A DNA stretch of 64,000 nucleotides from Acidobacteriota bacterium (GTDB lineage Bacteria > Actinomycetota > Acidimicrobiia > Spongiisociales > UBA5794), in NCBI GenBank assembly GCA_022562055.1, contig JADFQA010000006.1, forward strand, positions 1 to 64,000. Reading direction: 5' to 3'. Numbering within the stretch: position 1 is the stretch's first letter; each line of letters opens with the position of its first letter. Position numbers and translations under genes: made by a program. This document shows, one piece after another, positions 1 to 15,385 of the stretch. The notes under the pieces are model-generated. The model was not told the DNA's origin, made no database searches, and was given only the letters and a program-made list of their open reading frames with translations.

Positions 1-117
1 GCATGCGATCTCTACCTGGCGGTGTGGAACCGGGGTGATGATTCGAATGTGACCATCACCGGCGACCATGAACTATTCGAAACGTGGCACCGCAATCACC
101 GAATCCGCTGGTCGTAG
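1..117 (+). CDS. C-terminal end of a mycothiol-dependent maleylpyruvate isomerase-like protein (partial)
   Basis: An open frame enters from the left edge and stops with TAG at 115-117, giving the last 38 residues of a protein. The tail reads ACDLYLAVWNRGDD, then VTITGDHELFETW. This resembles the C-terminal domain of the actinobacterial mycothiol-dependent maleylpyruvate isomerase/DinB-like family, where a 'DLLLALWGR' helix is followed by a 'V-x-V-x-GD' strand. The family recognition rests on this short tail only. The start and catalytic domain lie outside the window. Confidence 0.5.
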   Translation, partial: ACDLYLAVWNRGDDSNVTITGDHELFETWHRNHRIRWS

Positions 118-189
118 GCGACCAGCAGCCACCCACAACAAGTATCAATCAGGCACATATGCGCACCGTATCATGCCTCCCAGCCGGTT

Positions 190-654
190 ATGCGCCACGA
201 TCCGCGGCTATCTGAGTTCTTTCCCAAGTGCGATGCCACCGACTACGAAATTGCGACCTCGGGAACCGCACTCAAACTCCGACATCTATGGGAGCAACTT
301 GATTCCCTAAGAGCTGTCCTGGAAGCACAGGCTGCCCTCCCTCTGCGTGAGGCGATCTTGCAGTACGTTGAAGCAGTCTCAGGCCAACTCGGCAAGCGTC
401 TGGGTGCCCTCCTCGCCCGAACCGGGCTGAGTGGCACGGATCCGGTAACGGGTGCCGAAGCGGGCAAGATGCTATGTGTGACGCAGCAACGGATCAGTCA
501 GATCGTGCGACAACTACATAGAAGAACGGATCTCGCCCGTCCACCGGCGGGGATATGGATGCCGCAAATCGCCGCCGCTGAGTCCGATGGCTGGCGCGTC
601 GAGTTCTCGGTTCGCGGCATTGAGGCAATCCGCTCGCTCTCTAGATCTCAGTGA
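190..654 (+). CDS. Hypothetical protein with a helix-turn-helix-like segment
   Basis: This 154-residue protein is not recognised. Residues about 86-110 (TGAEAGKMLCVTQQRISQIV) look like a helix-turn-helix with a recognition helix of the 'QQRISQIV' kind, as in small DNA-binding proteins that read a domain boundary and then a wing. The N-terminal half is helical and leucine/alanine-rich. The ATG at 190 is the first plausible start, but there is no strong ribosome-binding site. It points toward the oppositely transcribed gene at 670-978. A role in DNA binding is an inference from the motif alone. Confidence 0.45.
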   Translation: MRHDPRLSEFFPKCDATDYEIATSGTALKLRHLWEQLDSLRAVLEAQAALPLREAILQYVEAVSGQLGKRLGALLARTGLSGTDPVTGAEAGKMLCVTQQRISQIVRQLHRRTDLARPPAGIWMPQIAAAESDGWRVEFSVRGIEAIRSLSRSQ

Positions 655-669
655 TGGAGGACGCTACCT

Positions 670-978
670 CTATCCGACGCTGATCGATCCTTTGCGGATG
701 CGCGACGTGAGAGCCTTGTACCCATCGTCATTCAGCTCTAGAACGACTGGGCGGCTACGAAAGGTACCGATGTAGGCTGTCGCTTCGCCCTCGGTCCAGT
801 CCTCATCCATCAAGACGATGGCGTACTTCGTGGAGTACCAGGGAGGAGTTAGACCGCCGCCGCCCTCCGGTGGCATCGAGGACGCTTGCACGATCCACGG
901 CTGCGTGTTGAGCTCGATGTACGCCTGCGGGTCTCTCCGCACCTCGTGGTAGGACGTCATGATCCGGAGCTTCTTCAC
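670..978 (-). CDS. Hypothetical 102-residue protein
   Basis: The product is not recognised. It starts at a GTG (976-978) that overlaps the TGA of the upstream reading frame (975-977) in a GTGA arrangement, so it looks translationally coupled to the interrupted gene at 975-2194. It is soluble, has no signal peptide or membrane segment, and holds aromatic-rich stretches such as TQPWIVQASS and STKYAIVLMDEDW. It is probably the second gene of a two-gene unit. No function can be given. Confidence 0.45.
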   Translation of the reverse strand: MKKLRIMTSYHEVRRDPQAYIELNTQPWIVQASSMPPEGGGGLTPPWYSTKYAIVLMDEDWTEGEATAYIGTFRSRPVVLELNDDGYKALTSRIRKGSISVG

Positions 979-2194
979 GTGATGCTCTTGAACTCTCTCG
1001 CCACGAGCCCGAATCGCTCCATCACCGTGTCAGCCAGGATCTCAAAGGCACTGCCGGTAGCCGTGCATGCGACAACGCTGGTACCAAACACTCGCGACCC
1101 GACTCGGTTGCGGCTTGAAACGCTGAGCCTCTCACCGAGCCGGTGAGCCAAGCGATCGACAACGTTGACGCTGGGCTCATCGTTCTGGTCCGTTGAGGAG
1201 GGCGTCGATGAACTTCTTGGACCACTCTGGATCGTCGTAATCTGGCTTGCCGATCACGATTCTCTCGGTGCGAACGCGACTGTGCGGAACAGTTGATCGG
1301 CTGGGATTAGCCCCATGCACCGATTCAGTACCCAATCCACTATCGGCACTGCCGCGCCAGCTCCACTTCGAACGGACAGCGTCAGACCGATGCGGCACCT
1401 GGCCAGCCCAAAGCTTGAAGCTGTACCGCAATTCCCCAAGCCGGAATCGCATGGTCCAGAAGGGCGAACGGATCCGTCCGATCAAGCTGGCTACACGGTA
1501 CTTTGCCAACTCAGGATCGAAGAACTCCTTCACGCCGTCGAACGACGTGCGGGCTTTAGGAGCGTTGACGGCGGTCTCAGAGTCAAGGGCAATGGTCAGG
1601 AATGCCTCGGCGAATCGCCTACGGTCGGCGAACGACTTGAGAGGCCAATGTTGGCCGGAGACACGAGTCACAAAGTCGACGTACTCCCCGCATGGCACCG
1701 GATGGGATAAGAAGCGCTTTGAACACCCCCCGCACATCATCGTTTGTCACCGGTTCCTCTACTTCAATCGCTTCTGGCCAGGCGCACAGCGTGTCGCCAG
1801 AGCTCGCCCCATATGCCATTTCGTGCATGACGTATTTCCGCAGGGCGTCCGTGTCACCGCTCGCCATCTCGGCCATCACGACAGTGTCCTCATCGATGCT
1901 CGTCCTATCGAGCAACACGAAGACGACACCTGTTCCGAGATCCAGCAGCTGCAGTCCGATGCCAGGCCACTCTTCATATCCGAAATAGACAAGATATCGG
2001 CTGTGTTCTGGCAGGACACTGTCGAAGAGCTCATGAGCCAACGTGTCGGCCCAAATATCGTTTTCGGTGCGGTCGATAGCGATCTGATATACCAACTCCT
2101 CCAGCATCACGGGACTGTCGCTCCGTGACAACTGATGCTGAATCTCACGCGTGACGTGTTGGGCGAGGTCTTCGTGGTCAGACGAGGTAGGCAT
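975..2194 (-). pseudogene. Unrecognised gene broken by frameshifts
   Basis: Three consecutive minus-strand frames look like pieces of one protein of about 400 residues. The first runs from ATG 2194 to about 1690, the second from about 1690 to 1177, and the third from about 1200 to the stop at 975. The first switch fits one extra G in the GGGG run at 1686-1689: the first frame ends ...IPSGAMR and the second resumes EYVDFVTRVSG, both with normal high-GC third positions. The second switch lies near 1180-1200, where the second frame stops after FIDALLNGPER and the third continues NDEPSVNVVDRLAHRLGE. I do not recognise the family. The part at 1250-1400 is of doubtful frame, so more than two indels are possible. 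It may be two or three separate genes. Confidence 0.4.
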
Positions 2195-2616
2195 GTGTGG
2201 CGTTCAACGTATCACGAGACCGAAAGATGTGACACGGTTAGCCTTTTCTGCTTGGAATGGGGCGTGCGCTGTTTGAGGGGTTCCCGGTGTCCCGTCAGGC
2301 GAAAGTCGAAAGTCTCACGATTAGCACAGGTTGATCCCGGCGGTCTCGACGTGAGGAGCGGCATGCGCTGCGCAAGACGTGCTCGGACCAAGATAAACCC
2401 AGAATTGGCGTAGAAAGCCCTGGTCACAGACCCCCCTTCTGAGCTCGGGTCAGGAGGCGTCGAGCAACGGGTGCCCCACCCCCATTCAGTTGTCACCTCC
2501 AGGCTTCAGGGGGTCTCCCTGTTTGCGGAGTGTGAGACGCCGACCAGCCAAGCAATCTCATCGGGATCGCATGCGTAGGGCCGTCGCCTTTGGCAGCCGA
2601 ACACTCGACGGAGACG
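2195..2616. other. Intergenic region with no supported gene
   Basis: This 422-bp stretch lies between the 5' end of the frameshifted gene and the 3' end of the crotonase gene. No open frame here has convincing coding character. The only structure seen is a pair of inverted 8-mers, AGACCCCC at 2428-2435 and GGGGGTCT at 2509-2516, with about 73 bases between them; this could be chance in GC-rich DNA. No tRNA or integration site was found. Confidence 0.4.
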
Positions 2617-3513
2617 TCAGCTTTCGGTTTCGCTGGGACGGGAACCGTAGTCACCGAACGGTTCGTCACGCTCGCGGACAACTTGGCGCCAGCCAACCTT
2701 TTGGGCCCGTGCAACAAAGTCGAGGCCTTCTTGTGTGTGGCGGGCAACACCGTCAAACAACGTGCCAAGTAGACGTGATCGTTCGGGTCGATACATCTCG
2801 CGTGCAACGTCGTTGCACAACAGCTTGAGCATCTGGAGCTGGTTGAGCGGCAACAGCGCCATCCGTTGTGCAAGAGCCGTTGCTGTCTCCAGAAGTTGGC
2901 CCTCGGGCACGACCTCCAACACGAACCCGATGGCGGCAGCTTCTGTGCCTGTCATTTCGTCACCAGTGAGCAGGTAGCGCTTCGCACGCTCAAGTCCGAG
3001 GCGAGCTATCCACATCCAAGGCGCTTCCGGTGTGCCCCAAACTCGCGCAGGTGGGTAGCCGAACCGCGCCGAGTCGGCGGCGATAATCATGTCAGCGTTG
3101 AGGATCATGTCTGTCCCACCCGCAATGCACCAGCCCTGCACGGCAGCAATGGTGGGTTTCGACAACTCGAATAGTTTGGCCCAGGTGTCCGCATAGCGGC
3201 TGATCATGGCGAGGTCGGCAACCGAGTCCCACACCCGCCCTTCATCGGTTCCCTCGGATGCCTGCGCCACTGTCGACCAGTCGAGGCCAAATCCCGCGCA
3301 GAATGTGGGCCCTTCGGCGCGGATGAGAACGACACGTACGCTCGGGTCGGTGTCTGCGTCGTCGAGCGCGTCGGCAAACTCCTCACGAAACTGTGGTGTG
3401 ATCGTGTTGTACTCGTCAGCCCGACACAACACCAGCGACCGAACCGCCCCATCATCTTCGATCCGTACTGCCTGTCCCACGATGCCTCCCGAAGTTGAAA
3501 TGTCTTGTGACAC
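2617..3513 (-). CDS. Crotonase (enoyl-CoA hydratase/isomerase) superfamily protein
   Basis: This 298-residue protein has the crotonase fold, acting on an acyl-CoA thioester in the cytosol. The first oxyanion-hole segment is PTFCAGFGLDWS (residues 69-80). The second is VQGWCIAGGTDMILNADMII (125-144), followed by SARFGYPPARVWGTPEA. The two glutamates that catalyse hydration in true enoyl-CoA hydratases appear changed: the GGG-x-E-L position is Asp135 and the FGxPE position is Pro. A simple hydratase role is therefore doubtful; isomerase, hydrolase or another crotonase chemistry is more likely. It is a single gene, divergent from the phosphatase-fold gene at 3699, and lies near an acyl-CoA synthetase, which suggests acyl-CoA metabolism. 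Confidence 0.85.
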   Translation of the reverse strand: MSQDISTSGGIVGQAVRIEDDGAVRSLVLCRADEYNTITPQFREEFADALDDADTDPSVRVVLIRAEGPTFCAGFGLDWSTVAQASEGTDEGRVWDSVADLAMISRYADTWAKLFELSKPTIAAVQGWCIAGGTDMILNADMIIAADSARFGYPPARVWGTPEAPWMWIARLGLERAKRYLLTGDEMTGTEAAAIGFVLEVVPEGQLLETATALAQRMALLPLNQLQMLKLLCNDVAREMYRPERSRLLGTLFDGVARHTQEGLDFVARAQKVGWRQVVRERDEPFGDYGSRPSETES

Positions 3514-3698
3514 GACCTTGCCAGCCTGATGCGTTCCGACACTACCGGCCTCGGGGCCGTGAGCGCCAGAAGGTCAACTGGAGGATGCTGCGCACCCTCT
3601 GTCGCGGTCTCCAAGGACGTCTGGTTCCGACGGCCACTCGTGGTGTCAAGACCTCCATCGGGTGCGCTTGTCGGAGTTTCGACGACCGGTGGTTTCTT

Positions 3699-4436
3699 GT
3701 GCATCCGTTCACATTTCTTGCCTGTACCTACAACTTGTGGTCGACGTTTCGGTGGGAGGAACGGCGGCGGCCGCTGGAGCGGTTTCTTGAACTCCACCGC
3801 CCTGACATTTTGTGCGCTCAGGAGCTGTCACCCGGGGCGGCGACCCTCATCGGCGACACGATGTCTGCAATGAACCGAGTTGACGACCCGTTCTCGGGTT
3901 GGCTTAACGAGGGCAATATTTTTTGGAACACGGACTTGTTCGAGCTTGTCGACTACGGGGCCGTTGACATCGGGATGCTCGAAGAGAACCGACGTCTGTT
4001 TCACGTCAGGTTGCAGACAACTACCGGCGTGACGGTCGTGATCGCAACGGCGCACTTCAGTTGGTCCGGCAACGTTCGCGAGATCACCGAGGACGTCAAC
4101 ATCCGTATCGGCCAAGCCGAAAGGGCGGCCGTAGCTCTCGACAGTCTGGTCGGTCCCGACGAGCCGGTGTTGTTCATGGGGGATTTCAACGGCTACATCC
4201 ACCCGTTGCGTAAGCTACGCAACGCCGGTTTTGACGACTCGTTCATGTCCGTTGGACGCCAACCCAGTATGACTTTCCCGGCGTTCCCAATCGCGCGGCA
4301 GCCGCCGGAATTGCTCGACTGGATGATGCACCGCGGTCCGATCCGTCCGACGTTGACAAGCGTCATCGATTTCCACGTCGCGGGGTTTCCACCCTCAGAT
4401 CACAAACCCATCCTCACAACGTACCAACTCCAGTAG
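3699..4436 (+). CDS. Endonuclease/exonuclease/phosphatase-fold protein
   Basis: This 245-residue protein has the DNase I-like (EEP) fold. Motifs in order are the N-terminal strand TFLACTYNLW, the metal-binding Glu in DILCAQEL, TAHFSW, the catalytic MGDFNGY and the C-terminal PSDHKPI (Asp-His pair). It therefore probably cleaves a phosphoester in nucleic acid or a small substrate, using Mg2+. There is no signal peptide. The frame is open further upstream (an ATG at 3585), but family similarity begins only just after the GTG at 3699, so that start is preferred. The substrate cannot be read from the sequence. Confidence 0.75.
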   Translation: MHPFTFLACTYNLWSTFRWEERRRPLERFLELHRPDILCAQELSPGAATLIGDTMSAMNRVDDPFSGWLNEGNIFWNTDLFELVDYGAVDIGMLEENRRLFHVRLQTTTGVTVVIATAHFSWSGNVREITEDVNIRIGQAERAAVALDSLVGPDEPVLFMGDFNGYIHPLRKLRNAGFDDSFMSVGRQPSMTFPAFPIARQPPELLDWMMHRGPIRPTLTSVIDFHVAGFPPSDHKPILTTYQLQ

Positions 4437-4560
4437 GGAGATGGATCAGTCTCCGAACCACGCCGTCCTTTGAAATTCGACGAACAACGCGGGCTGGATT
4501 CGCCAGCGAGTAACCTGCGGCGCGAAATTGAGATCGGTGGAAGCTGTGGAGCCACGAGCG

Positions 4561-5788
4561 GTGAGCGAGCGTAGTTTGGTTGGGGCGGTTTCGCCGCTGT
4601 TTATTGGCCTTGCATTCTTGATGGTCGGCAACGGGTTGATCGGATCACTTCTTGGGATTCGCGCCGCGTCCGAGGGTTTCCCAACGTCTATCATCGGTGT
4701 CGTGATGGCGTTGTATTACGTCGGATTCCTCGTCGGTTCCTTGAAGATCCCCGGGTGGCTTGCAAGCGTCGGACACATCCGAGTGTTTTCTGGTCTCGCA
4801 TCTCTCGCCGCTGCAACCACCTTTCATACTTGATCGTCCTTGCTCCGATCTCGTGGGGAGTGCTGCGGTTCGTCGCCGGTCTGTGCATGTCTGGTTTGTA
4901 TGGACCGTAGAGAGCTGGCTCAACGACCGTGCCTCAAATGCCACTCGGGGCCGACTCCTATCCATATACATGCTGGTCGTCACGCTCGGGTTAGCAGCCG
5001 GACAGTTCTTGCTCGGTTCGGCAGATCCGAGCGGGACAAAGTTATTCTTGGTGGCCGGGATTTTGACGTCGTTGGGTGTCGTCCCGGTCGCTCTCATCAA
5101 GATCCCAACGCCTCGCCGGCCGATCCCAGTTGAGGTCTCGTTGGGGGCGCTCGTCAAGAAAGCTCCACTCGGAGTCGTTGCTGTGGCACTGTCGGGTGCG
5201 GCGGGCAGCTCCATCCTGGCGCTCGGCGCGGTCTTTGCAACAAACGTCGGGATGGCACCAGGCAAGGTCGGGTTGTTCATGGCGGCGTCGCTGGCCGGCG
5301 CAGTCGTGACTCAGTATCCACTGGGGTACCTCTCAGATCGGTTTCCCCGCAGAAGAGTCATACTGGTCGTTGCCGGGGGAGCGGTTGTGGCGGCGGTCTT
5401 TGCGATTCCCGTCGCGTCAGATAACGGAACGCTCTTTGTTCTCATGTCCCTCTATGGGGCCCTTGCATTCCCGATGTACTCCCTTGCGGTGTCGCACATA
5501 AACGACGTGATTCCCGAAGACCAGCTTGTTCAAACCGCCGCCGGCATCATCTTTGTGTTCGGAATCGGGTCGGTTGTCGGTCCGCTGACCGTCTCTGTCG
5601 CGATGACCGTGTTCGGTCCGGTCGGATACCTGTGGGGCCTTGCGGCGTTCTTCCTCCCGGTTACGGTGTATGCGCTTGTCCGGGTCGTCTTTCGGGATCG
5701 ACCGATTCAGCGCCGATTTATCAACCTGCCCCACCGATCGTCAACGGCCGCCGCGATGCTGGCCGATCGGTCACGCGAAAAACGCTAG
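4561..5788 (+). pseudogene. MFS transporter (YcaD-like) interrupted by two frameshifts
   Basis: The gene starts in one frame (SPLFIGLAFLMVGNGLIGSL...LASLAAATTF), which stops at 4831. A second frame carries the expected next part, LIVLAPISWGVLRFVAGLCM (4830-4889). A third resumes with TVESWLNDRASNATRGRL and runs to 5788. The three pieces join into a normal 12-helix transporter with the sugar/drug MFS features 'VESWLND' and GYLSDRFPRRR. The frame order fits two single-base losses near 4815-4830 and 4895-4905. GTG 4561 is chosen as start, with a GGAG sequence 9 bases upstream; GTG 4537 or 4546 and TTG 4528 are alternatives. As written the gene cannot make a full transporter. Confidence 0.75.
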
Positions 5789-5803
5789 CCCATTGCCCTG
5801 CCA

Positions 5804-7420
5804 TCAGGTCATGTTGCGTAGGTCTACCCGTCGGATCTTGCCCGAGATCGTCTTCGGCAGTTCGCTCATGTATGCAATCTCGCGAGGGTATTTGTACGGC
5901 GCGGTTATCGCCTTGACATGGTCCTGGATTTCCAACGTGAGTTCGTCCGAAGCTTCGTAACCGGGCGCCAACACGATGAACGCTTTCACGATGTTGCCGC
6001 GTAACTCGTCTGGTTTGCCGACCACGGCAGCTTCGGCCACCGCCGGATGTTCGATCAGCGCCGACTCCACCTCGAACGGACCGATCCGGTAGGCAGCCGA
6101 GAGGATCACGTCGTCGGCCCGGCCCACAAACCAGAGGTAGCCGTCCTCGTCGCGATACGCCCGGTCTCCCGTGTAGTACCAGCCGTGTCTGAACACGTCG
6201 TTCGTTTGCCCGTCGTCCTTCCAGTATCCGCGGAACAGCCCAACGGGCCACGGGTCGGTTTTGACCGCAATGTGACCCTCCTCCCCGTCGGCGCATACGG
6301 TGCCGTCGTCATCGACGATGTCGACTTCCATCCCGGGTGCGGGCAACCCCATCGAACCTGGTTTGACCGTGACGGTCGGATAGTTGGCGACAAGGCATAC
6401 CGTTTCTGTCTGCCCATACCCGTCGTACGCGACTGTGCCGGTGGCCGCCTCCCATGTGGCAATCACCTCAGGGTTCAGCGGTTCACCCGCACTCGTGCAA
6501 TGGCGCAGCGTCGACCAGTCATAGGCTGACAAGTCCATCTGGGCGAACGCCCGATACAGTGTCGGTGGAGCACAGAACGAAGTCACACCGAGTTCGCCGA
6601 TCAGGGTCATCATCCGGTCGAAGTCTGGCTTGCCGACGATATTCCACATGACGACCGTCGCGCCGATAATCCACTGTCCGAACAGCTTCCCCCACGCGGC
6701 CTTCGCCCACCCGGTGTCCGACACGGTCCAGTGGACATCGTCCGGGGTGAGATCGTGCCAGAACCGGGCCGTGATCTCGTGGCCGAGAGCGTAGGAACCG
6801 AGATGCTGAACCATCTTGGGATGGGCTGTTGTTCCCGATGTGAAGTAGAGCAGCAGAGGATCATCCGAGCGCGTGTGCTCAAACTCAGCCGGCTCGTCGG
6901 GCATTTCCGCAAGAGCTGTGCCAAAACTCGTCCAGCCTTCCATGTCGGCGCCGACCACAAACCGGGCTGTGATCGAGGGACATTGGTCCAGAACCCCCGA
7001 GAGGCGTTCCGCCCCGGCTTTGTCACAGATCGCGGCTGCGGCGTCTGTACGGTTTATGCGGTACACCTGGTCATTGGGCATAAGCTGGGTGGTCCCCGGC
7101 ATCGGGATGGCCCCAATCTGAAAACAACCAAGCATTGCGGCGTACCACTCAACAACGCGCGGGAGCTGGACAAAAACCCTGTCACCCTTACCAATGCCGC
7201 TGCGTTTCAGGAGATGTGCGGTCCGGTTTGCAAGGTCTGCCAAGTCGGCAAACGTGTAGCGGTTGATCGTGACACCGTCTGGTTCGACCCCGATAAGTGC
7301 AACCTTGTCAGGCGTTTCCGCAGCTCGTGCGCCTATCACGTCACCGGTGAAGTTGAAGAACTCAGGTATCTCGACCCTGAACTCCGCAAATGTTTTCTCG
7401 TAGTCGACCATGTTCGCCAC
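5804..7420 (-). CDS. Acyl-CoA synthetase (AMP-forming, medium-chain type)
   Basis: This 538-residue adenylate-forming enzyme activates a carboxylic acid to acyl-AMP and then acyl-CoA. The phosphate loop is TSGTTAHPK (194-202), the adenine motif is GYGQTET (334-340), the hinge region contains YYTGDRAYRDEDGYLWFVGR, and the catalytic lysine is in SGKIRR (526-531). Overall similarity is to the medium-chain (ACSM-like) group. The loop is unusual because the family consensus is TSGTTG-x-PK and here the Gly after TT is Ala. It converges on the broken MFS gene with only 15 bp between stops. With the crotonase at 2617 it suggests acyl-CoA catabolism; the substrate acid is unknown. Confidence 0.9.
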   Translation of the reverse strand: MANMVDYEKTFAEFRVEIPEFFNFTGDVIGARAAETPDKVALIGVEPDGVTINRYTFADLADLANRTAHLLKRSGIGKGDRVFVQLPRVVEWYAAMLGCFQIGAIPMPGTTQLMPNDQVYRINRTDAAAAICDKAGAERLSGVLDQCPSITARFVVGADMEGWTSFGTALAEMPDEPAEFEHTRSDDPLLLYFTSGTTAHPKMVQHLGSYALGHEITARFWHDLTPDDVHWTVSDTGWAKAAWGKLFGQWIIGATVVMWNIVGKPDFDRMMTLIGELGVTSFCAPPTLYRAFAQMDLSAYDWSTLRHCTSAGEPLNPEVIATWEAATGTVAYDGYGQTETVCLVANYPTVTVKPGSMGLPAPGMEVDIVDDDGTVCADGEEGHIAVKTDPWPVGLFRGYWKDDGQTNDVFRHGWYYTGDRAYRDEDGYLWFVGRADDVILSAAYRIGPFEVESALIEHPAVAEAAVVGKPDELRGNIVKAFIVLAPGYEASDELTLEIQDHVKAITAPYKYPREIAYMSELPKTISGKIRRVDLRNMT

Positions 7421-7605
7421 GCCACCACCTCCTCCCGCGAGCGTAGTCCGTGAGTGGATTGTCGATCCAACCGGACCAAGCCCAAGGATGTCGTCTTCGC
7501 AATAGACCGGTCGTAAACCTGCCGTGTGGGGTTGGTCACTCGGCTAGAAACGCTGTTCTATGCACGCGAAGGCGGCGACAAATATCGCCGTGTATCGTGC
7601 AACGC

Positions 7606-7800
7606 ATGCGCACCGCTAGCGTTCGGATAGACACCGCCACCCACCAGGAACTGAAGCAGCTCGCAATCGCACTCGGAGCCACGTTGGGTGAGACGATCGC
7701 GCTTGCAGTACGCCGTCTTCGCCAGGACCGCATCGGCGAGGAGTTAGCCGCTGCGCTCACATCCGATGACGTCAGGTGGCTCGATACGGACCTCGGTTGA
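7606..7800 (+). CDS. MazE/VapB-type antitoxin
   Basis: This 64-residue protein starts at ATG 7606. The N-terminus (MRTASVRIDTATHQELKQLA) is a ribbon-helix-helix-like DNA-binding segment, followed by ETIALAVRRLRQD. The acidic tail SDDVRWLDTDLG is typical of antitoxins that clamp their toxin. Its end overlaps the toxin frame at 7766 by 35 bp, as expected for a toxin-antitoxin operon. The pair probably represses its own promoter, by analogy with the family. Confidence 0.75.
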   Translation: MRTASVRIDTATHQELKQLAIALGATLGETIALAVRRLRQDRIGEELAAALTSDDVRWLDTDLG

Positions 7801-8127
7801 CGTAGCGTACCTGAGCAACGGTCAGCCATCGGGGAGAGAAGCCGATCTTTTTCACCCTGTGGTCGTTGTCACCGCGCAGCGGATTCTGGACGCCCGGCCG
7901 AGGATCGCACGGGTTGTACCGTTAACGACCACGATTCGCGGGATCGGATCGGAAGTTCTGATCGAACCGGACAGCGCCAATGGCTTGAGGCTCCCCTCGG
8001 CTGCGCAATGCCACCACGTGCGCGCTGTATCAATCACCCGGGTGGAACGAGTCCAAGGCAACGTAGGTCCGGTCGCACTCACCAGATCCGCGACGTCATC
8101 GGCCTCATCCTCGACATACCGACGTAG
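7766..8127 (+). pseudogene. MazF/PemK-family toxin with a C-terminal frameshift
   Basis: The frame opens with VDVAYLSNGQPSGREADLFH, then PVVVVTAQRILD, VVPLTTTIRG and VLIEPDSANGL, which match the barrel core of MazF-type mRNA interferases. The protein then reaches VQGNVGPVALT. The expected ending HQIRDVIGLILDIPT with a stop at 8125-8127 is present but in a different frame, which fits loss of one base near 8072-8083. Left unshifted, the frame runs on to 8245 and reads as non-protein sequence under the SIR2 gene end. The toxin may therefore be inactive or altered at its C-terminal helix. ATG 7766 is the only upstream start that fits the operon overlap. Confidence 0.65.
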
Positions 8128-8177
8128 CCGTCGTCCGCTACCACTTCGTGTACAGCTGCCGGAGCTGATGAACTTGG

Positions 8178-11100
8178 CTAGCCGATCTCTGACTCCGGCA
8201 ACCAGTCCGCCGCCCCGGCGCAGCCGAGCCGGAGCGCTTCGTTGACGATCGAAGTGAGATCTTCTGTGCTCGCTTGTGCGCTAGTCCTGAGGACGATTCT
8301 TTCCAGTTCTACGCAACCCCAAAATGGCTCTCCAACGTCCTTTAGGAGATGCCCGAGTAGGCGAGCGAACTGGGCCGGGGACTGATCCAGTTGAGCGTCC
8401 TTCAGGCTGCGCAGGAACGTTCGGTTCCCATCCAGGTTGGCTGGCGAGGCTACGGCAAGGTTGACGCCGTCCTCGATCGAGTCGGTGAGATACACCACCC
8501 AAGCCGCTATGGCGGAGGCCTCTTCCTTGGTCAGCACAAGCGGAATGCTCGCAGCCCGGTCCGTCCAGTACTGGTGCATCCACTGTTGCCATTGGGATTC
8601 CACTGCTTCTGATGTCAGGTCGTCGAGAGTCCGCGCCACTTGTTCCATCCACTCCGTCCGAATGTGGGCGTCAACCGTCGCAGTGAATTTCTTGATCCAA
8701 GGGAGCGGATCCGTCTCGCTGTAAACCGCGACGCCTGCGAGATGTTGTAGTAGCCGCTGACGAGATTCCTCAGAGAAAGATCCAATTCTCTCAATAGCCC
8801 CCATGTAATGCTCGTCTAGACCTGCCGCGAGTAGGCCATCGTCCCAGCGGCCCCAAGAGAGGAAGCCGTCCCAAGTTCGGAGCGCACGAACTGGATCTTC
8901 CCAACTGAGAAGCGGCAAGATCGTTTCTGTGCACCACTCCCGATCGGCTTTGAAGAAGAAGTAGACCTGACTCGCCAGGATTACTTCAGCATTTGCACTA
9001 CGGTCGTCTCCGGCAGAAAGCAATCGTTCGAGCGACGTCCGATGTTCCTGTGTAAGTCCCGTCCAGGCATCGCCAGCGTCTCGCCAGTCTCCCGCGACTA
9101 CTTCAATCCAGAATTGAGTTAGTTGGCCTGCTGGACGATTAATCGCACGGAACAGCCAGCCGCTGTCGACAGTCTCTGGCGTCGTACCACCGAGGCTATT
9201 CCAAACTTTCGTGGCGAGTTCTTGCGCTGCGGGCGATCGATACCATTCGGTAGGAGACCCTTCGCCTTGCCCTCCCTCGGACAGGAGTCGGGTGATCTCT
9301 GTAACGACGCCCTGCATATTCTCTCGCGTGAGCCGCTCCAGAATGACAGTCGCGGTTTCTACGTCGACCTTTGCCGATTCCCAGCCACGGATGACAGCGC
9401 TGAGAATCTTGGAACTGCTATCCGTATTCGCGTCAAGCACAGCGATTCCGTCTTGAGGATGCTCGCGGATGGTTTCGATAAGCACGGTCTCGGCGTCGGT
9501 CCATGTGGAACCCTCGTGAGAAGGCTCTGCATCCTCGTACCCTTGGATCTCGAGTACCGCCGCGGCGGGATCGTCAGCGATCTTCTCATGGAGCTCGGTG
9601 GCGGTCATCGGCGGACTGCGAGGTACAACCCTGAACTCGGTCGAAAATGACAAGTCAGGCCGCGCTGGTATCTCGAACTCTGGGTGCTCTTCCCGTAGAC
9701 GCCCGAGCGCTTCCTCCGCACTCAGGAGGCCAGGGGCTTTCTCCGCGATCCGGGCGAGGATGTCGAGCTGGGCATAGTCGCTGAGACCTCGGCCAGTCTC
9801 TGTCTCGGCGCCTGCCGTGATGTCAGCGACGAGATCATCGGCGACATCTCGGGTTGCGTTCGGTAGCGCCATCTCGATGAGGTGAAATACTTCGGGCCGC
9901 AGCTGGTATTTCTGTAGCCAACCGCTCTCTCTCAGCCAAGAAATCTTCGTTGTCTCGTCCACGTCAGACCGGATTGTCCAGCCGTGGATTGCCAATCGTT
10001 GCAGTATTGGCACGTTCGATGCAGCCCAAATTGCGATGTACGCGGATCCGGTGCTGTTGCTGGCATTCAATTCCGTCTCGAGGCTGTCACGGGCGGCATC
10101 AATCAGGACATCGACAGGGGTTTCGATCGCGTAGTGCGGCGCGGAACGGATCGTCGTTCGGCGATCAGAGAGAGGATCCCACCCCCACCGATTCGAACCT
10201 GCAGTCTCGCTAATCCGATGCCCCTGTCGAAGATTCTTATCGGCGATAGCGAGCAGCTCCAGGGCAGCGTCTTCTAAGTTGGGTTGGAAGAGATTTTGCC
10301 AGGCTTCCGCGAGCCAGTAGGCACCGCCACGAAAGGTGACGTCGAACCGGGGCATGGCATCAGATCCGTACGTCCTTTGCAGCTTTGCGCGTGGCTCGGT
10401 GAGATGATCGAAGAGCAGGAGGGCCGCTTGCCGGTGATCCGGCCATTGCGATGCGTCCAACGCATATTCGAGTAGCTCGTTGTCAACTTGCTGCGAACTC
10501 TGGACTAGGAGTAGGAGCCACGGTGAGACCCAGTCAGGTCGTGGTCTCGCCATGCGATGAATGTGGCTTCCGATGGCTACCCAAAGCTGAGGCCCGAGTT
10601 CGCCACCGTTGACCCGCACAACCTCAAGGGCCGCGTTCGACAGATCTTTGTTCCCCGCGAAATGTTCGGCGAACCAATTTGCGAGAGCGAGAGTGCATCT
10701 GTTCGCCTCCGCTGTCGGCTCGAACATTCGCTTAAAGTGTGGCTGTTGTCCTGCCCAGTCCAGCCACTCTTGCCCTCGTGCGCTGGCCGTGAACAGCCGC
10801 ACAGTCTCGGGGTCGGCGATCGCACGTTGCAGCTGGTCGTGTTCCTCCGGTATCCGAGTAGGGGCTGCGGATACGAGTCGCGCGATAAGTTGCTGGCGCT
10901 CCAGCATTCCTATCGACACTTCGTTAGCCCAACCTTTGATGATGTCGACAAGATGCTCGTGTGGTTCTTCGGCTACCTCGCGTGAATCTTCGACTGCCTC
11001 GTACCAGATCGGGCGAATCCCCAACTGCCGCCAGTCCGTCGAGTCGGACTCCTGGATCGGTTTTGGAGCAAGAGCGTAGCGATGCGAATCGCGTCCGAGG

Positions 11101-11735
11101 CTGCGGGCGAGATAGCGCATGATCATGTCGCTGTGGCTGTATCCGATGAAGAGCACGGTGTATTTCGTAAACATGCGCTCCAGGAAGCGAGCAGCCCAGG
11201 CGTCGCGAAGATATGCGCGTCCGAAGTCCCCGTCTGTAACCACGAGGTGGCGTGGTTCTTGCCGTAGGTTCCCATGTAAATAGACGAGGCCGTTGAAATC
11301 GTCGCCGGCTGGCAATGCGGGTCCAACAAATTCGTCATAGTCGAGTCCGGCGTCCTTGGCTGCACGTGAGAGATGCAGGTCGTAGTTTGTTGTCACTACG
11401 CGACTGGTCCCGGCCGCTCCAACAAGGTTTGTTATCGCGGCATGAAGTGCATTCGGTTCAGAGTCTGGCGAACTCAGTAGGTCACGGACTCGCAGATGCA
11501 CGTCCACGTCGGCGTCGGCGTCGTCGATCCTGCCCAGTAAGCTCTCTGGCCGGTCTAGCTCCCCGTCACGAATCTCTACATGAGCGTCGTCGGCGATTGT
11601 CTTGGCCAGGATCCGAAACCTAGGGAGACCCGATGGGGTTCCTACCGAGGCGCCCGCACCGACGAAAACGACCAGGCTTCCGGCGCCATGTGCCTCGATC
11701 AGGGCCTGTGGTAGTTCAACGTCGCGGATCAACAT
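8178..11735 (-). CDS. Large SIR2-domain protein, probable anti-phage NADase
   Basis: This 1185-residue protein has an N-terminal SIR2-like domain at about residues 1-270. The NAD loop is VVFVGAGASVGTPSG (22-36). The catalytic Asn lies in VTTNYD (114-119, Asn117), the candidate catalytic His in YLHGN (152-156, His154), and FIGYSHSDMIMRYL (196-209) follows. The remaining 900 residues are largely helical with many tryptophans and no second enzyme motif. This plan matches defence-associated sirtuins (DSR type), which deplete NAD when a C-terminal sensor meets a phage component; a DUF4020-like C-terminus is possible but unverified. It is a single gene beside a toxin-antitoxin pair, as in a small defence island. 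ATG 11735 begins MLIRDVELP. Confidence 0.8.
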   Translation of the reverse strand: MLIRDVELPQALIEAHGAGSLVVFVGAGASVGTPSGLPRFRILAKTIADDAHVEIRDGELDRPESLLGRIDDADADVDVHLRVRDLLSSPDSEPNALHAAITNLVGAAGTSRVVTTNYDLHLSRAAKDAGLDYDEFVGPALPAGDDFNGLVYLHGNLRQEPRHLVVTDGDFGRAYLRDAWAARFLERMFTKYTVLFIGYSHSDMIMRYLARSLGRDSHRYALAPKPIQESDSTDWRQLGIRPIWYEAVEDSREVAEEPHEHLVDIIKGWANEVSIGMLERQQLIARLVSAAPTRIPEEHDQLQRAIADPETVRLFTASARGQEWLDWAGQQPHFKRMFEPTAEANRCTLALANWFAEHFAGNKDLSNAALEVVRVNGGELGPQLWVAIGSHIHRMARPRPDWVSPWLLLLVQSSQQVDNELLEYALDASQWPDHRQAALLLFDHLTEPRAKLQRTYGSDAMPRFDVTFRGGAYWLAEAWQNLFQPNLEDAALELLAIADKNLRQGHRISETAGSNRWGWDPLSDRRTTIRSAPHYAIETPVDVLIDAARDSLETELNASNSTGSAYIAIWAASNVPILQRLAIHGWTIRSDVDETTKISWLRESGWLQKYQLRPEVFHLIEMALPNATRDVADDLVADITAGAETETGRGLSDYAQLDILARIAEKAPGLLSAEEALGRLREEHPEFEIPARPDLSFSTEFRVVPRSPPMTATELHEKIADDPAAAVLEIQGYEDAEPSHEGSTWTDAETVLIETIREHPQDGIAVLDANTDSSSKILSAVIRGWESAKVDVETATVILERLTRENMQGVVTEITRLLSEGGQGEGSPTEWYRSPAAQELATKVWNSLGGTTPETVDSGWLFRAINRPAGQLTQFWIEVVAGDWRDAGDAWTGLTQEHRTSLERLLSAGDDRSANAEVILASQVYFFFKADREWCTETILPLLSWEDPVRALRTWDGFLSWGRWDDGLLAAGLDEHYMGAIERIGSFSEESRQRLLQHLAGVAVYSETDPLPWIKKFTATVDAHIRTEWMEQVARTLDDLTSEAVESQWQQWMHQYWTDRAASIPLVLTKEEASAIAAWVVYLTDSIEDGVNLAVASPANLDGNRTFLRSLKDAQLDQSPAQFARLLGHLLKDVGEPFWGCVELERIVLRTSAQASTEDLTSIVNEALRLGCAGAADWLPESEIG

Positions 11736-11859
11736 CTCGCGTCAACGATACCCCCTGGTGGGAGTCACACCGCGAGAACGGTAACGCGCGACTTCAGAAT
11801 CAGTGCGGGGGCCAGCTTTTGGCGGGGGTATAGTCGGATCCCGTTTTGGAGGAGTTCGA

Positions 11860-13001: not shown

Positions 13002-15385
13002 GTACGACAAGCGCACTCGGCGGGATTGTCCGGCGTCGTGAGGACCCGGCATTGATCGAGGGAAAAGGCCGATATGTAGACGATATCAAGCTGCACAACG
13101 AAGCCGCGTTGGCCTTCGTCCGCAGTCCGCTCGCCCATGCAAAGGTTCTGTCGATCGACAGCTCGGCTGCGTTAGCAATGGACGGTGTTTTCGCCGTGTA
13201 CACCGCGGCGGACGTTGAGCACATGGGTGCTCTGGTCGCGCAGGTCGCGATCGTTCCACCCCCGCTGCTCAATGGCGATGTCGTGAAGCACGTTGGTGAA
13301 GCCGTTGCGATGGTGGTGGCGAGTGACCGATACGTTGCTCAAGATGCGGTAGACGCGATCTTCGTGGACTACGAGCCAATGGATGCCATCGTCGATCTGA
13401 CCGACGCAGCGTCTGACAGGATCGTGATCCACGAAGGCACGGAGTCGAACACGGTGATCTCTTGGGTCGCACCGTTTGGTGCCGAACCCGATGCTCAAGC
13501 TGCCGTGAAAACCGGCATCGAAGAAGCGATGGCCCGCGACGACACGGTCGTAGTCAGCCAGAAGATGACCAACCAGAGGCTTATCCCGACGGCCATCGAG
13601 CCGCGCCGGGTGCTCGCCGATTGGGAAGCTGGCTACAAAACGCTCACTGTGCACACTTCCTCACAGATTCCACACGCGGTTGCGGGCGGTATCTCCGTCA
13701 TGTTGGGGCTGCCGTCTACCAGCGTACGAGTCATCGCCCCCGAAGTTGGGGGAGGTTTCGGATCGAAGCTCAACGTCTATCGAGAGGAAATCCTCGTTGC
13801 TTGGGCATCGCAGCAACTCGAACGACCAGTTCGGTGGACCGAGACGCGCCGCGAAGCAGCCAACGCCACGACCCAGGGTCGTGGTTGGATTGGCACTGCG
13901 ACCGTTGTTGGTACCAGCGATGGAGAGCTTCTGGGTTACAAGTTCGAGGGCCTTGCGGATCTCGGTGCGTACACCCAAGGTTTGGGCGCGGCCATTCCGT
14001 TTCTCGGACTCTTCGTTGCCTCTGGTCAGTACAAGATGCCGACGTACTGGAAAGTCGACTGTGTGGTGACCAACACCGCAACGATCGATGCCTATCGCGG
14101 TGCGGGCCGACCCGAAGCGATGTACTACATCGAGCGGATCATCGACATGTACGCAAGACAAATCGGCATGGATCCGGCAGACGTTCGGCTCAAGAACTTC
14201 ATCCCAGCCGAGGAATTCCCCGTCGCGATGTCGCCGGCGGGATTCGCAATGGACACCGGCGACTACGCGATGAACCTCAACGCTCTGCTTGAGACCGGTG
14301 CGTACGACGAGATGAAGGCAACTCGAGAAGCTGCTCGCGCTGAAGGCCGTCATGTCGGCATCGGTCTGGCGACGTACGTCGAGGTGTGCGGTTTCGCACC
14401 GGCGGGATTGGCCGACCTCGGCTTCTCGTGGTCGGCGTACGGGCTTCCGTCAGCGTACAACGGGTCGGGACTCGTTCGGGTGAACCCGGATGCGACCGTC
14501 ACCGTCATGATCGGGACCGGTCCAAGCGGTCAGGGCCACCAAACAACGTGGGCACAGATCGTGAGCGACAGGCTCGGGATTGCGGTCGAGGACATCGTGG
14601 TGCACCATGGTGACACCGGCGTCTCGCCGATGGGGATTGGCTCGTTCGGATCCCGTTCGGCTGCAGTTGACGGCTCCGCAACGTACGAGGCGGCAGATCG
14701 GGTCAGGGCCAAGGCTGCCAAGATCGCCGCTCACCTGCTCGAAGCGAATGAGGAGGACATCGTGTTCGCCGACGGCGCCGCGCACGTTGCAGGCTCTCCC
14801 GATAGTTCCGTCGCGTGGTCTGAGATTGCCACAGCCAGCTACCAGGCGCACAAGGCGCCGGAGGGTTTGGACGGCGGACTTGAGAGCGAAGTGCTCTTCA
14901 GTCCAGCCAACGCAACCTGGCCGTTTGGTGCACACCTTGCGCTGGTCGAAGTCGACGCCGAAACGGGCAACGTCGAGATACTGCGGTACGTTGCCATGGA
15001 CGACTGCGGCAATGTGATCAATCCGATGATTGTCGACGGTCAGATCCACGGCGGCCTTGCGCAGGGTATTGGTCAGGCGCTGCTCGAAGAGGCCGTGTAT
15101 GACGAGCACGGCAACCTGCTCACCGGCTCGATGGTTGATTACCCAATCCCGACCGCCGGCGATGTTCCGATGTTCGAGCTTCATCGCACCGTTACCCCGA
15201 CAGACATCAACGCTATGGGCGTGAAGGGAGTCGGCGAGGCCGGAACTATCGGGTCGGCACAAACCATCGTTAACGCCGTCGTCGACGCTGTCTCTCCGCT
15301 CGGAGTGACACACATCGACATGCCGCTCAGACCAAAACGTGTCTGGGAGGCAATAAACGCGGCATCCGGAAACGGGAGGGCGTAG
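12998..15385 (+). CDS. coxL: Molybdenum hydroxylase large subunit, form II CO-dehydrogenase-like
   Basis: This 795-residue subunit binds the molybdopterin cofactor. The active-site loop is AYRGAGR (365-371), which marks the form II (BMS) group; true form I CO dehydrogenases carry AYRCSFR there. The catalytic glutamate is in VGEAGTIG (Glu747). The segments GGGFGSKLN and DCGNVINPM also match the family. Form II enzymes have been argued to oxidise CO, but many act on other small carbonyl or N-heterocyclic compounds, so the substrate is open. The start at ATG 12998 overlaps the coxS stop. Gene order S-L-M is itself typical of form II clusters. Confidence 0.9.

What the first reader, a model, noticed from the sequence alone, without database searches (positions are those of the whole stretch)
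8178..11735. Very large SIR2-domain protein, a candidate anti-phage NADase with an uncharacterised sensor
The N-terminal SIR2 domain has the Asn and His needed for NAD hydrolysis, and about 900 residues of helical sequence follow with no known enzyme motif. This matches the plan of defence-associated sirtuins, but the C-terminus is the part that decides which phage component is sensed and I cannot match it by eye. It sits alone next to a toxin-antitoxin pair at the border between variable and core DNA.
Basis: partly seen in the sequence, partly recalled or inferred. Interest (0 to 1): 0.6.

Follow-up and report, generated by a model that had tools for sequence, protein, structure and literature searches.

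The report
Divergent DSR1-like anti-phage NADase gene
This is a single bacterial immunity gene, a distant relative of the known phage-defence protein DSR1, that very probably senses an infecting phage with its long helical tail and then destroys the cell's NAD+; it is a fairly ordinary find, but it belongs to a broad, unstudied sister group of DSR1.

Summary
The ORF is real: 1185 aa on the minus strand (8178-11735). Residues 1-275 are a SIR2 NADase-type domain with GAGxS, TTNxD and the catalytic pair N117/H154, invariant in 73 homologues, and no cysteine (so no sirtuin zinc site). Residues 278-1185 are a confidently predicted HEAT/ARM-like alpha-solenoid (pLDDT 92). It scores only 259 bits against the NCBIfam Dsr1 equivalog (cut-off 1400) and falls in a separate, fully supported clade found in at least ten phyla. 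So it is DSR1-like rather than DSR1 proper. It is accessory: absent from the other sampled genomes of its genus and family, and sitting where a sister genome carries different genes. Relatives have no constant partner gene, often lie beside other defence genes, and one rides on a lambdoid phage. Most likely mechanism: the solenoid senses a phage protein and activates SIR2 NAD+ hydrolysis. Trigger and activity are inferred, not shown. The neighbouring toxin gene is probably unrelated, and is frameshifted.

The parts
8178..11735 (-). DSR1-like gene, 1185 aa, ATG start at 11735
   Evidence: ORF; homologues over full length; start MLIRDVE matches the starts of relatives
10911..11735 (-). SIR2 NADase-type effector domain (residues 1-275)
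   Evidence: Pfam SIR2_2; VIA-align Z 22-25, rmsd about 3 A over about 250 residues to DSR2, ThsA and KomC SIR2 domains
11646..11660 (-). GAGxS NAD-binding motif (residues 26-30)
   Evidence: G26, G28 and S30 invariant in 73 sequences
11379..11393 (-). TTNxD motif with catalytic N117 (codon 11385-11387)
   Evidence: N117 and D119 in 73 of 73
11274..11276 (-). Catalytic H154 codon
   Evidence: H154 in 73 of 73; presumed equivalent of DSR2 H171
8181..10904 (-). C-terminal HEAT/ARM-like alpha-solenoid, presumed sensor (residues 278-1185)
   Evidence: AlphaFold2 pLDDT 92.1, pTM 0.83; hhalign to canonical DSR1 C-terminus, 809 columns, probability 100, E 5.5e-52
8424..8702 (-). DUF4020 (residues 1013-1104)
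   Evidence: Pfam PF13212, E 4e-8, 33.6 bits against cut-off 22.7; genome hit at these coordinates; found in 28 of 40 members scanned

Best explanation
The gene encodes a stand-alone phage-defence protein of the DSR1 family in the broad sense (SIR2 plus alpha-solenoid with DUF4020), from a clade that is sister to the characterised proteobacterial-type DSR1. The C-terminal solenoid keeps the SIR2 domain inactive until it binds a phage-made protein during infection. The SIR2 domains then hydrolyse NAD+ using N117 and H154, the NAD+ pool collapses, and phage propagation is aborted. Shown here: domain architecture, conserved catalytic residues, absence of the sirtuin zinc cysteines, full-length homology to DSR1, lack of a conserved partner gene, and accessory distribution. 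Inferred from DSR1/DSR2: NADase activity, allosteric activation, oligomerisation and phage sensing. The identity of the trigger is unknown.
For: Pfam SIR2_2 and DUF4020. PADLOC Dsr1 models, best E 3.8e-56, matched by 40 of 40 clade members. NCBIfam Dsr1 E 8e-77. Full-length collinear hhalign to canonical DSR1, and of the C-terminus alone. N117/H154 invariant in 73. No cysteine in residues 1-275. SIR2 domain closest in structure to DSR2, ThsA and KomC NADases. No full-length copy in 59 other related genomes. In the genus sister G002 the same interval carries other genes. No constant neighbour around the relatives; the neighbours include type I restriction, ThsA, PD-Lambda-1, AbiEi, GmrSD and integrases, and the 106 neighbours hit 275 PADLOC models against 11 for 37 core window proteins. 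A clade member sits on a lambdoid phage contig between ninB and a P-like gene.
Against: The score of 259 bits is far below the NCBIfam Dsr1 equivalog cut-off of 1400, and the clade is separated from canonical DSR1 by a long branch (1.93, support 100), so trigger and outcome need not be the same. There are no activity data, and no phage-resistance data for any member of this clade were found. The neighbourhood comparison is rough because many PADLOC models are redundant and the control set is smaller.
Confidence: 0.82

Rival explanations
1. It is a SIR2-solenoid defence protein, but one that acts mainly against plasmids or other mobile DNA rather than phages.
For: SIR2 domains also serve as effectors in short-Argonaute systems, which are reported to react to plasmids and phages (PMC11290490). 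A clade member lies on a plasmid and others near recombinases.
Against: The C-terminus is homologous to DSR1, reported as anti-phage (PMC10952713), and a clade member is carried by a phage. There is no nucleic-acid-binding partner such as an Argonaute or HerA next to it.
Confidence: 0.08
2. It is a sirtuin-type protein deacylase with a regulatory, non-defence role.
For: The SIR2 fold is shared with CobB and other sirtuins (Z about 13.5).
Against: No cysteine in residues 1-275, hence no zinc module. Classic Pfam SIR2 scores only 13.5 bits, below its cut-off. Patchy, accessory distribution.
Confidence: 0.04
3. It is a DSR2 that recognises tail tube protein in the way described for DSR2.
For: DSR2 is the top Foldseek match of the whole model, and the SIR2 domains superpose well.
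Against: Sequence matches to DSR2 chains cover only the SIR2 domain. The solenoid searched alone does not bring DSR2 to the top, whereas it matches DSR1 by profile over 809 columns.
Confidence: 0.03
4. The SIR2 protein and the adjacent CcdA-like/MazF-like pair form one functional unit, for example with the pair stabilising or triggering the SIR2 gene.
For: They share the same interval that is replaced in the sister genome (7450-11826).
Against: No constant neighbour in the loci of relatives. The toxin frame is broken in this assembly, and the genes are convergent.
Confidence: 0.03

Closest known systems
DSR1 (defence-associated sirtuin 1; NCBIfam NF041818, PADLOC Dsr1)
   Same: SIR2 domain plus long C-terminus with DUF4020; about 1200 residues; single gene; collinear homology over the full length
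   Different: Only about 22% profile identity overall and 16% in the C-terminus; 259 bits against an equivalog cut-off of 1400; separate clade with support 100
DSR2
   Same: Very similar SIR2 domain followed by a long helical C-terminus; same catalytic Asn and His
   Different: Sequence match limited to the SIR2 domain; DSR2 is about 1005 residues; no evidence for tail tube recognition here
Thoeris ThsA
   Same: SIR2 NADase domain (Z 23.8 to SeThsA)
   Different: ThsA is about 480 residues with a different C-terminal domain and works with ThsB; no ThsB partner here
Avs5 (SIR2-STAND)
   Same: SIR2 NADase effector fused to a large sensor
   Different: No STAND ATPase was detected in this protein by the Pfam scan

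Membership tests
DSR1 | N-terminal SIR2 domain with catalytic Asn and His | tested here: met
   SIR2_2 E 1.9e-21; N117 and H154 invariant
DSR1 | C-terminal DUF4020 | tested here: met
   33.6 bits against cut-off 22.7
DSR1 | Full-length homology to DSR1 | tested here: met
   hhalign 1078 columns, probability 100, E 2.9e-80; C-terminus alone 809 columns, E 5.5e-52
DSR1 | NCBIfam Dsr1 equivalog score cut-off (1400 bits) | tested here: not met
   259 bits; clade relatives 218-337; canonical DSR1 1674-1996
DSR1 | Groups with canonical DSR1 in a tree | tested here: not met
   In a separate clade of 74 rows; branch to the nine canonical rows 1.93, support 100
DSR1 | NAD+ depletion on phage infection, and protection | not testable with these tools
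   Needs bench work
DSR2 | C-terminal region homologous to DSR2 | tested here: inconclusive
   Sequence match to DSR2 chains confined to the SIR2 domain; structural alignments that run beyond it have rmsd 10-12 A
Thoeris ThsA | Partner ThsB (TIR) gene nearby | tested here: inconclusive
   No TIR gene recognised among the adjacent ORFs read in the window, but the neighbours were not all scanned for TIR
Sirtuin deacylase (CobB type) | Zinc-binding cysteines and Pfam SIR2 above cut-off | tested here: not met
   No cysteine in residues 1-275; PF02146 13.5 bits against cut-off 24

The most novel reading that the evidence does not exclude
The window protein represents a broad DSR1-like clade, spread over Actinomycetota, Acidobacteriota, Chloroflexota, Pseudomonadota, Cyanobacteriota, Bacillota and others. 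Its divergent solenoid senses a phage component different from that sensed by canonical DSR1, so it would be a functionally separate defence system (a third kind of DSR).
Probability: 0.35. Interest if true: 0.55.

Novelty: new variant of a known kind. Interest (0 to 1): 0.35.

Why it matters
Few DSR1 proteins have been characterised, and none of the papers found here names a DSR1 trigger or reports a DSR1 structure. A sister clade present in at least ten phyla would let the conserved sensor surface be mapped across very diverse homologues, and would make the DSR1 trigger question testable in actinobacterial hosts. For annotation, at least one such protein (on the Rhodococcus ruber plasmid) is called only 'SIR2 family protein', so strict cut-offs are likely to miss defence genes of this clade.

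Tried and rejected
A single-protein scan of genome contigs found nothing; the scan with an alignment gave at least 436 relatives. Weak phmmer matches of residues 871-958 to von Willebrand factor A1 (E about 0.03) were dismissed as chance: the region is all-helical in the model and the matches vanish with a family profile. No match in 50,697 phage records by tblastn, and no match with E under 0.001 in predicted viral structures. Matches of the solenoid to importins, PP2A scaffold and CAND1 (Z up to 11.9) were taken as generic alpha-solenoid likeness, within the range the tool warns of for helical repeats. Flanking direct repeats that would mark an insertion were sought and not found (only imperfect repeats inside the interval). 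The toxin-antitoxin pair as a functional partner was rejected because no neighbour is conserved. Base composition gives no sign of recent transfer (GC3 0.63 against 0.62-0.73 for other window genes). Literature searches for DUF4020 found no paper.

Full report
Observation. An open stretch of that length is not chance (about 7e-18 per start), and its start MLIRDVE lines up with the starts of independent relatives. The genome is a 2.9-Mb draft, 97% complete. It is probably an acidimicrobial actinobacterium, because a 'same class' genome contig (G210:C6) has the same length as a record titled Acidimicrobiia.

Effector. Pfam gives SIR2_2 at residues 112-243 (E 1.9e-21) and only a sub-threshold classic SIR2 match. 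The NAD-binding motifs GAGxS (26-30) and TTNxD (115-119) are present; a 2026 paper on Avs5 lists these motifs as shared by the SIR2 domains of Avs5, DSR1, DSR2, ThsA and short Argonautes (PMC12931631). In DSR2, mutation of the conserved N133 or H171 to alanine lowers NADase activity (PMC10981675). The domain contains no cysteine, so the zinc module of protein-deacylating sirtuins is missing. The predicted domain superposes on the SIR2 domains of DSR2, ThsA and KomC with Z 22-25 and about 3 A rmsd over about 250 residues.

Sensor region. Three results match it. Pfam DUF4020 hits residues 1013-1104 above its curated cut-off, and 28 of the 40 clade members scanned carry it. PADLOC Dsr1 models hit with E down to 3.8e-56, and all 40 members scanned hit them. 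Profile-profile alignment of the C-terminal 908 residues with five canonical DSR1 proteins gives probability 100, E 5.5e-52, over 809 columns; the full-length comparison is collinear over 1078 columns. AlphaFold2 predicts the region with high confidence (pLDDT 92.1, pTM 0.83) as an alpha-solenoid of more than 40 helices with two short strands. Structure searches return importins, PP2A scaffold and CAND1 with Z up to 11.9, which is generic for helical repeats. The SIR2 domain is better conserved than the solenoid (mean 0.54 against 0.40). That is expected if the solenoid tracks changing phage proteins, but it is also expected of scaffolds in general.

Family position. NCBIfam's Dsr1 equivalog gives 259 bits against a cut-off of 1400. 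Five clade relatives scanned give 218-337 bits and two canonical proteins 1674 and 1996; one further viral-contig homologue (L050) gives 357. In a tree of 83 proteins the window protein lies in a 74-member clade, separated from nine canonical DSR1 by a branch of 1.93 with support 100 (the root is only a midpoint). Its nearest relatives are L058 (Acidimicrobiales, 50% identity), Amycolatopsis and Micromonosporaceae. The clade spans Actinomycetota, Acidobacteriota, Chloroflexota, Pseudomonadota, Thermodesulfobacteriota, Cyanobacteriota, Planctomycetota, Bacillota, Latescibacterota and Bipolaricaulota. A Rhodococcus ruber plasmid member is annotated only as 'SIR2 family protein'. So by the strict test it is not a Dsr1 equivalog, yet it is homologous to DSR1 from end to end. 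I describe it as DSR1-like.

Genomic setting. Among 59 related genomes none has a full-length copy, and PF13212 occurs in 6 of 395 genomes of the class. In the same-genus genome G002, DNA homology with the window stops at 7449 and resumes at 11827. Before coxG that genome holds different genes (an ABC transporter, a TetR-like regulator and others), and the block on the left is rearranged. The gene is thus accessory, in a variable slot between conserved blocks. GC3 gives no sign of recent transfer, and no flanking repeats were found. Around the relatives no neighbour cluster recurs in more than five loci, which fits a single-gene system. Among 106 neighbouring proteins there are type I restriction subunits, ThsA, PD-Lambda-1, HmaC, AbiEi, GmrSD, recombinases and integrases. 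Thirty-seven core proteins of the window hit only 11 PADLOC models, against 275 for the neighbours. This comparison is coarse. One clade member lies on a viral contig with lambdoid genes, between ninB and a P-like helicase loader and opposite to them. Phages commonly carry defence genes in such positions (my own knowledge).

Mechanism. For DSR2, cryo-EM work shows a dimer of dimers through SIR2 tetramerisation, inactivity of the full-length protein or SIR2 domain alone, and activation by the phage tail tube protein (PMC10973363). [quoted passage not shown] By homology, the window protein most likely works as a latent NADase released by binding of a phage protein to the solenoid. The architecture and catalytic residues are shown here; activity, activation and trigger are inferred. 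I found no paper that identifies a DSR1 trigger, and sequence searches of the solved-structure library gave no significant match beyond the SIR2 domain for either the window clade or canonical DSR1.

Neighbouring toxin pair. Next to the 3' end, on the plus strand, are a CcdA-like antitoxin (7608-7800 by its likely start) and a MazF/PemK-like ORF (7766-8245). The toxin ORF loses its usual end: after PVALT the frame runs into unrelated sequence, while QIRDVIGLILDIPT-stop is found at 8083-8127 in another frame. Either the toxin is broken or the draft assembly has an error there. The apparent 68-base overlap with the SIR2 gene comes only from this frameshift.

Verdict. Interest is modest: a good example of a large, little-studied sister clade of a known defence family.

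Noticed in passing
window 7766-8245 (+), 8083-8127: MazF/PemK-like toxin ORF is frameshifted near its 3' end; the typical C-terminal end QIRDVIGLILDIPT-stop lies in another frame, so the gene is broken or the assembly has an error.
   Followed up: partly
L032 4258-12148: A clade member is carried by a lambdoid phage or prophage contig (IMGVR_UViG_3300025728_000347) between ninB and a P-like helicase loader, in opposite orientation, alongside O, Q and CII-like genes.
   Followed up: yes
window 1-11800 versus G002:C19: The crotonase, AMP-ligase, phosphatase/nuclease-like and MFS genes are conserved in the sister genome but in a different order; the interval before coxG holds unrelated genes there.
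   Followed up: partly
L101 7001-10539; L091 7001-10469: Two relatives have interrupted reading frames (split ORFs), possibly decaying copies or assembly errors.
   Followed up: no
window 13874-13956 (+): ARAGORN calls a tRNA-Thr (ggt) inside the coding sequence of the CO-dehydrogenase-like large subunit, probably a false call.
   Followed up: no
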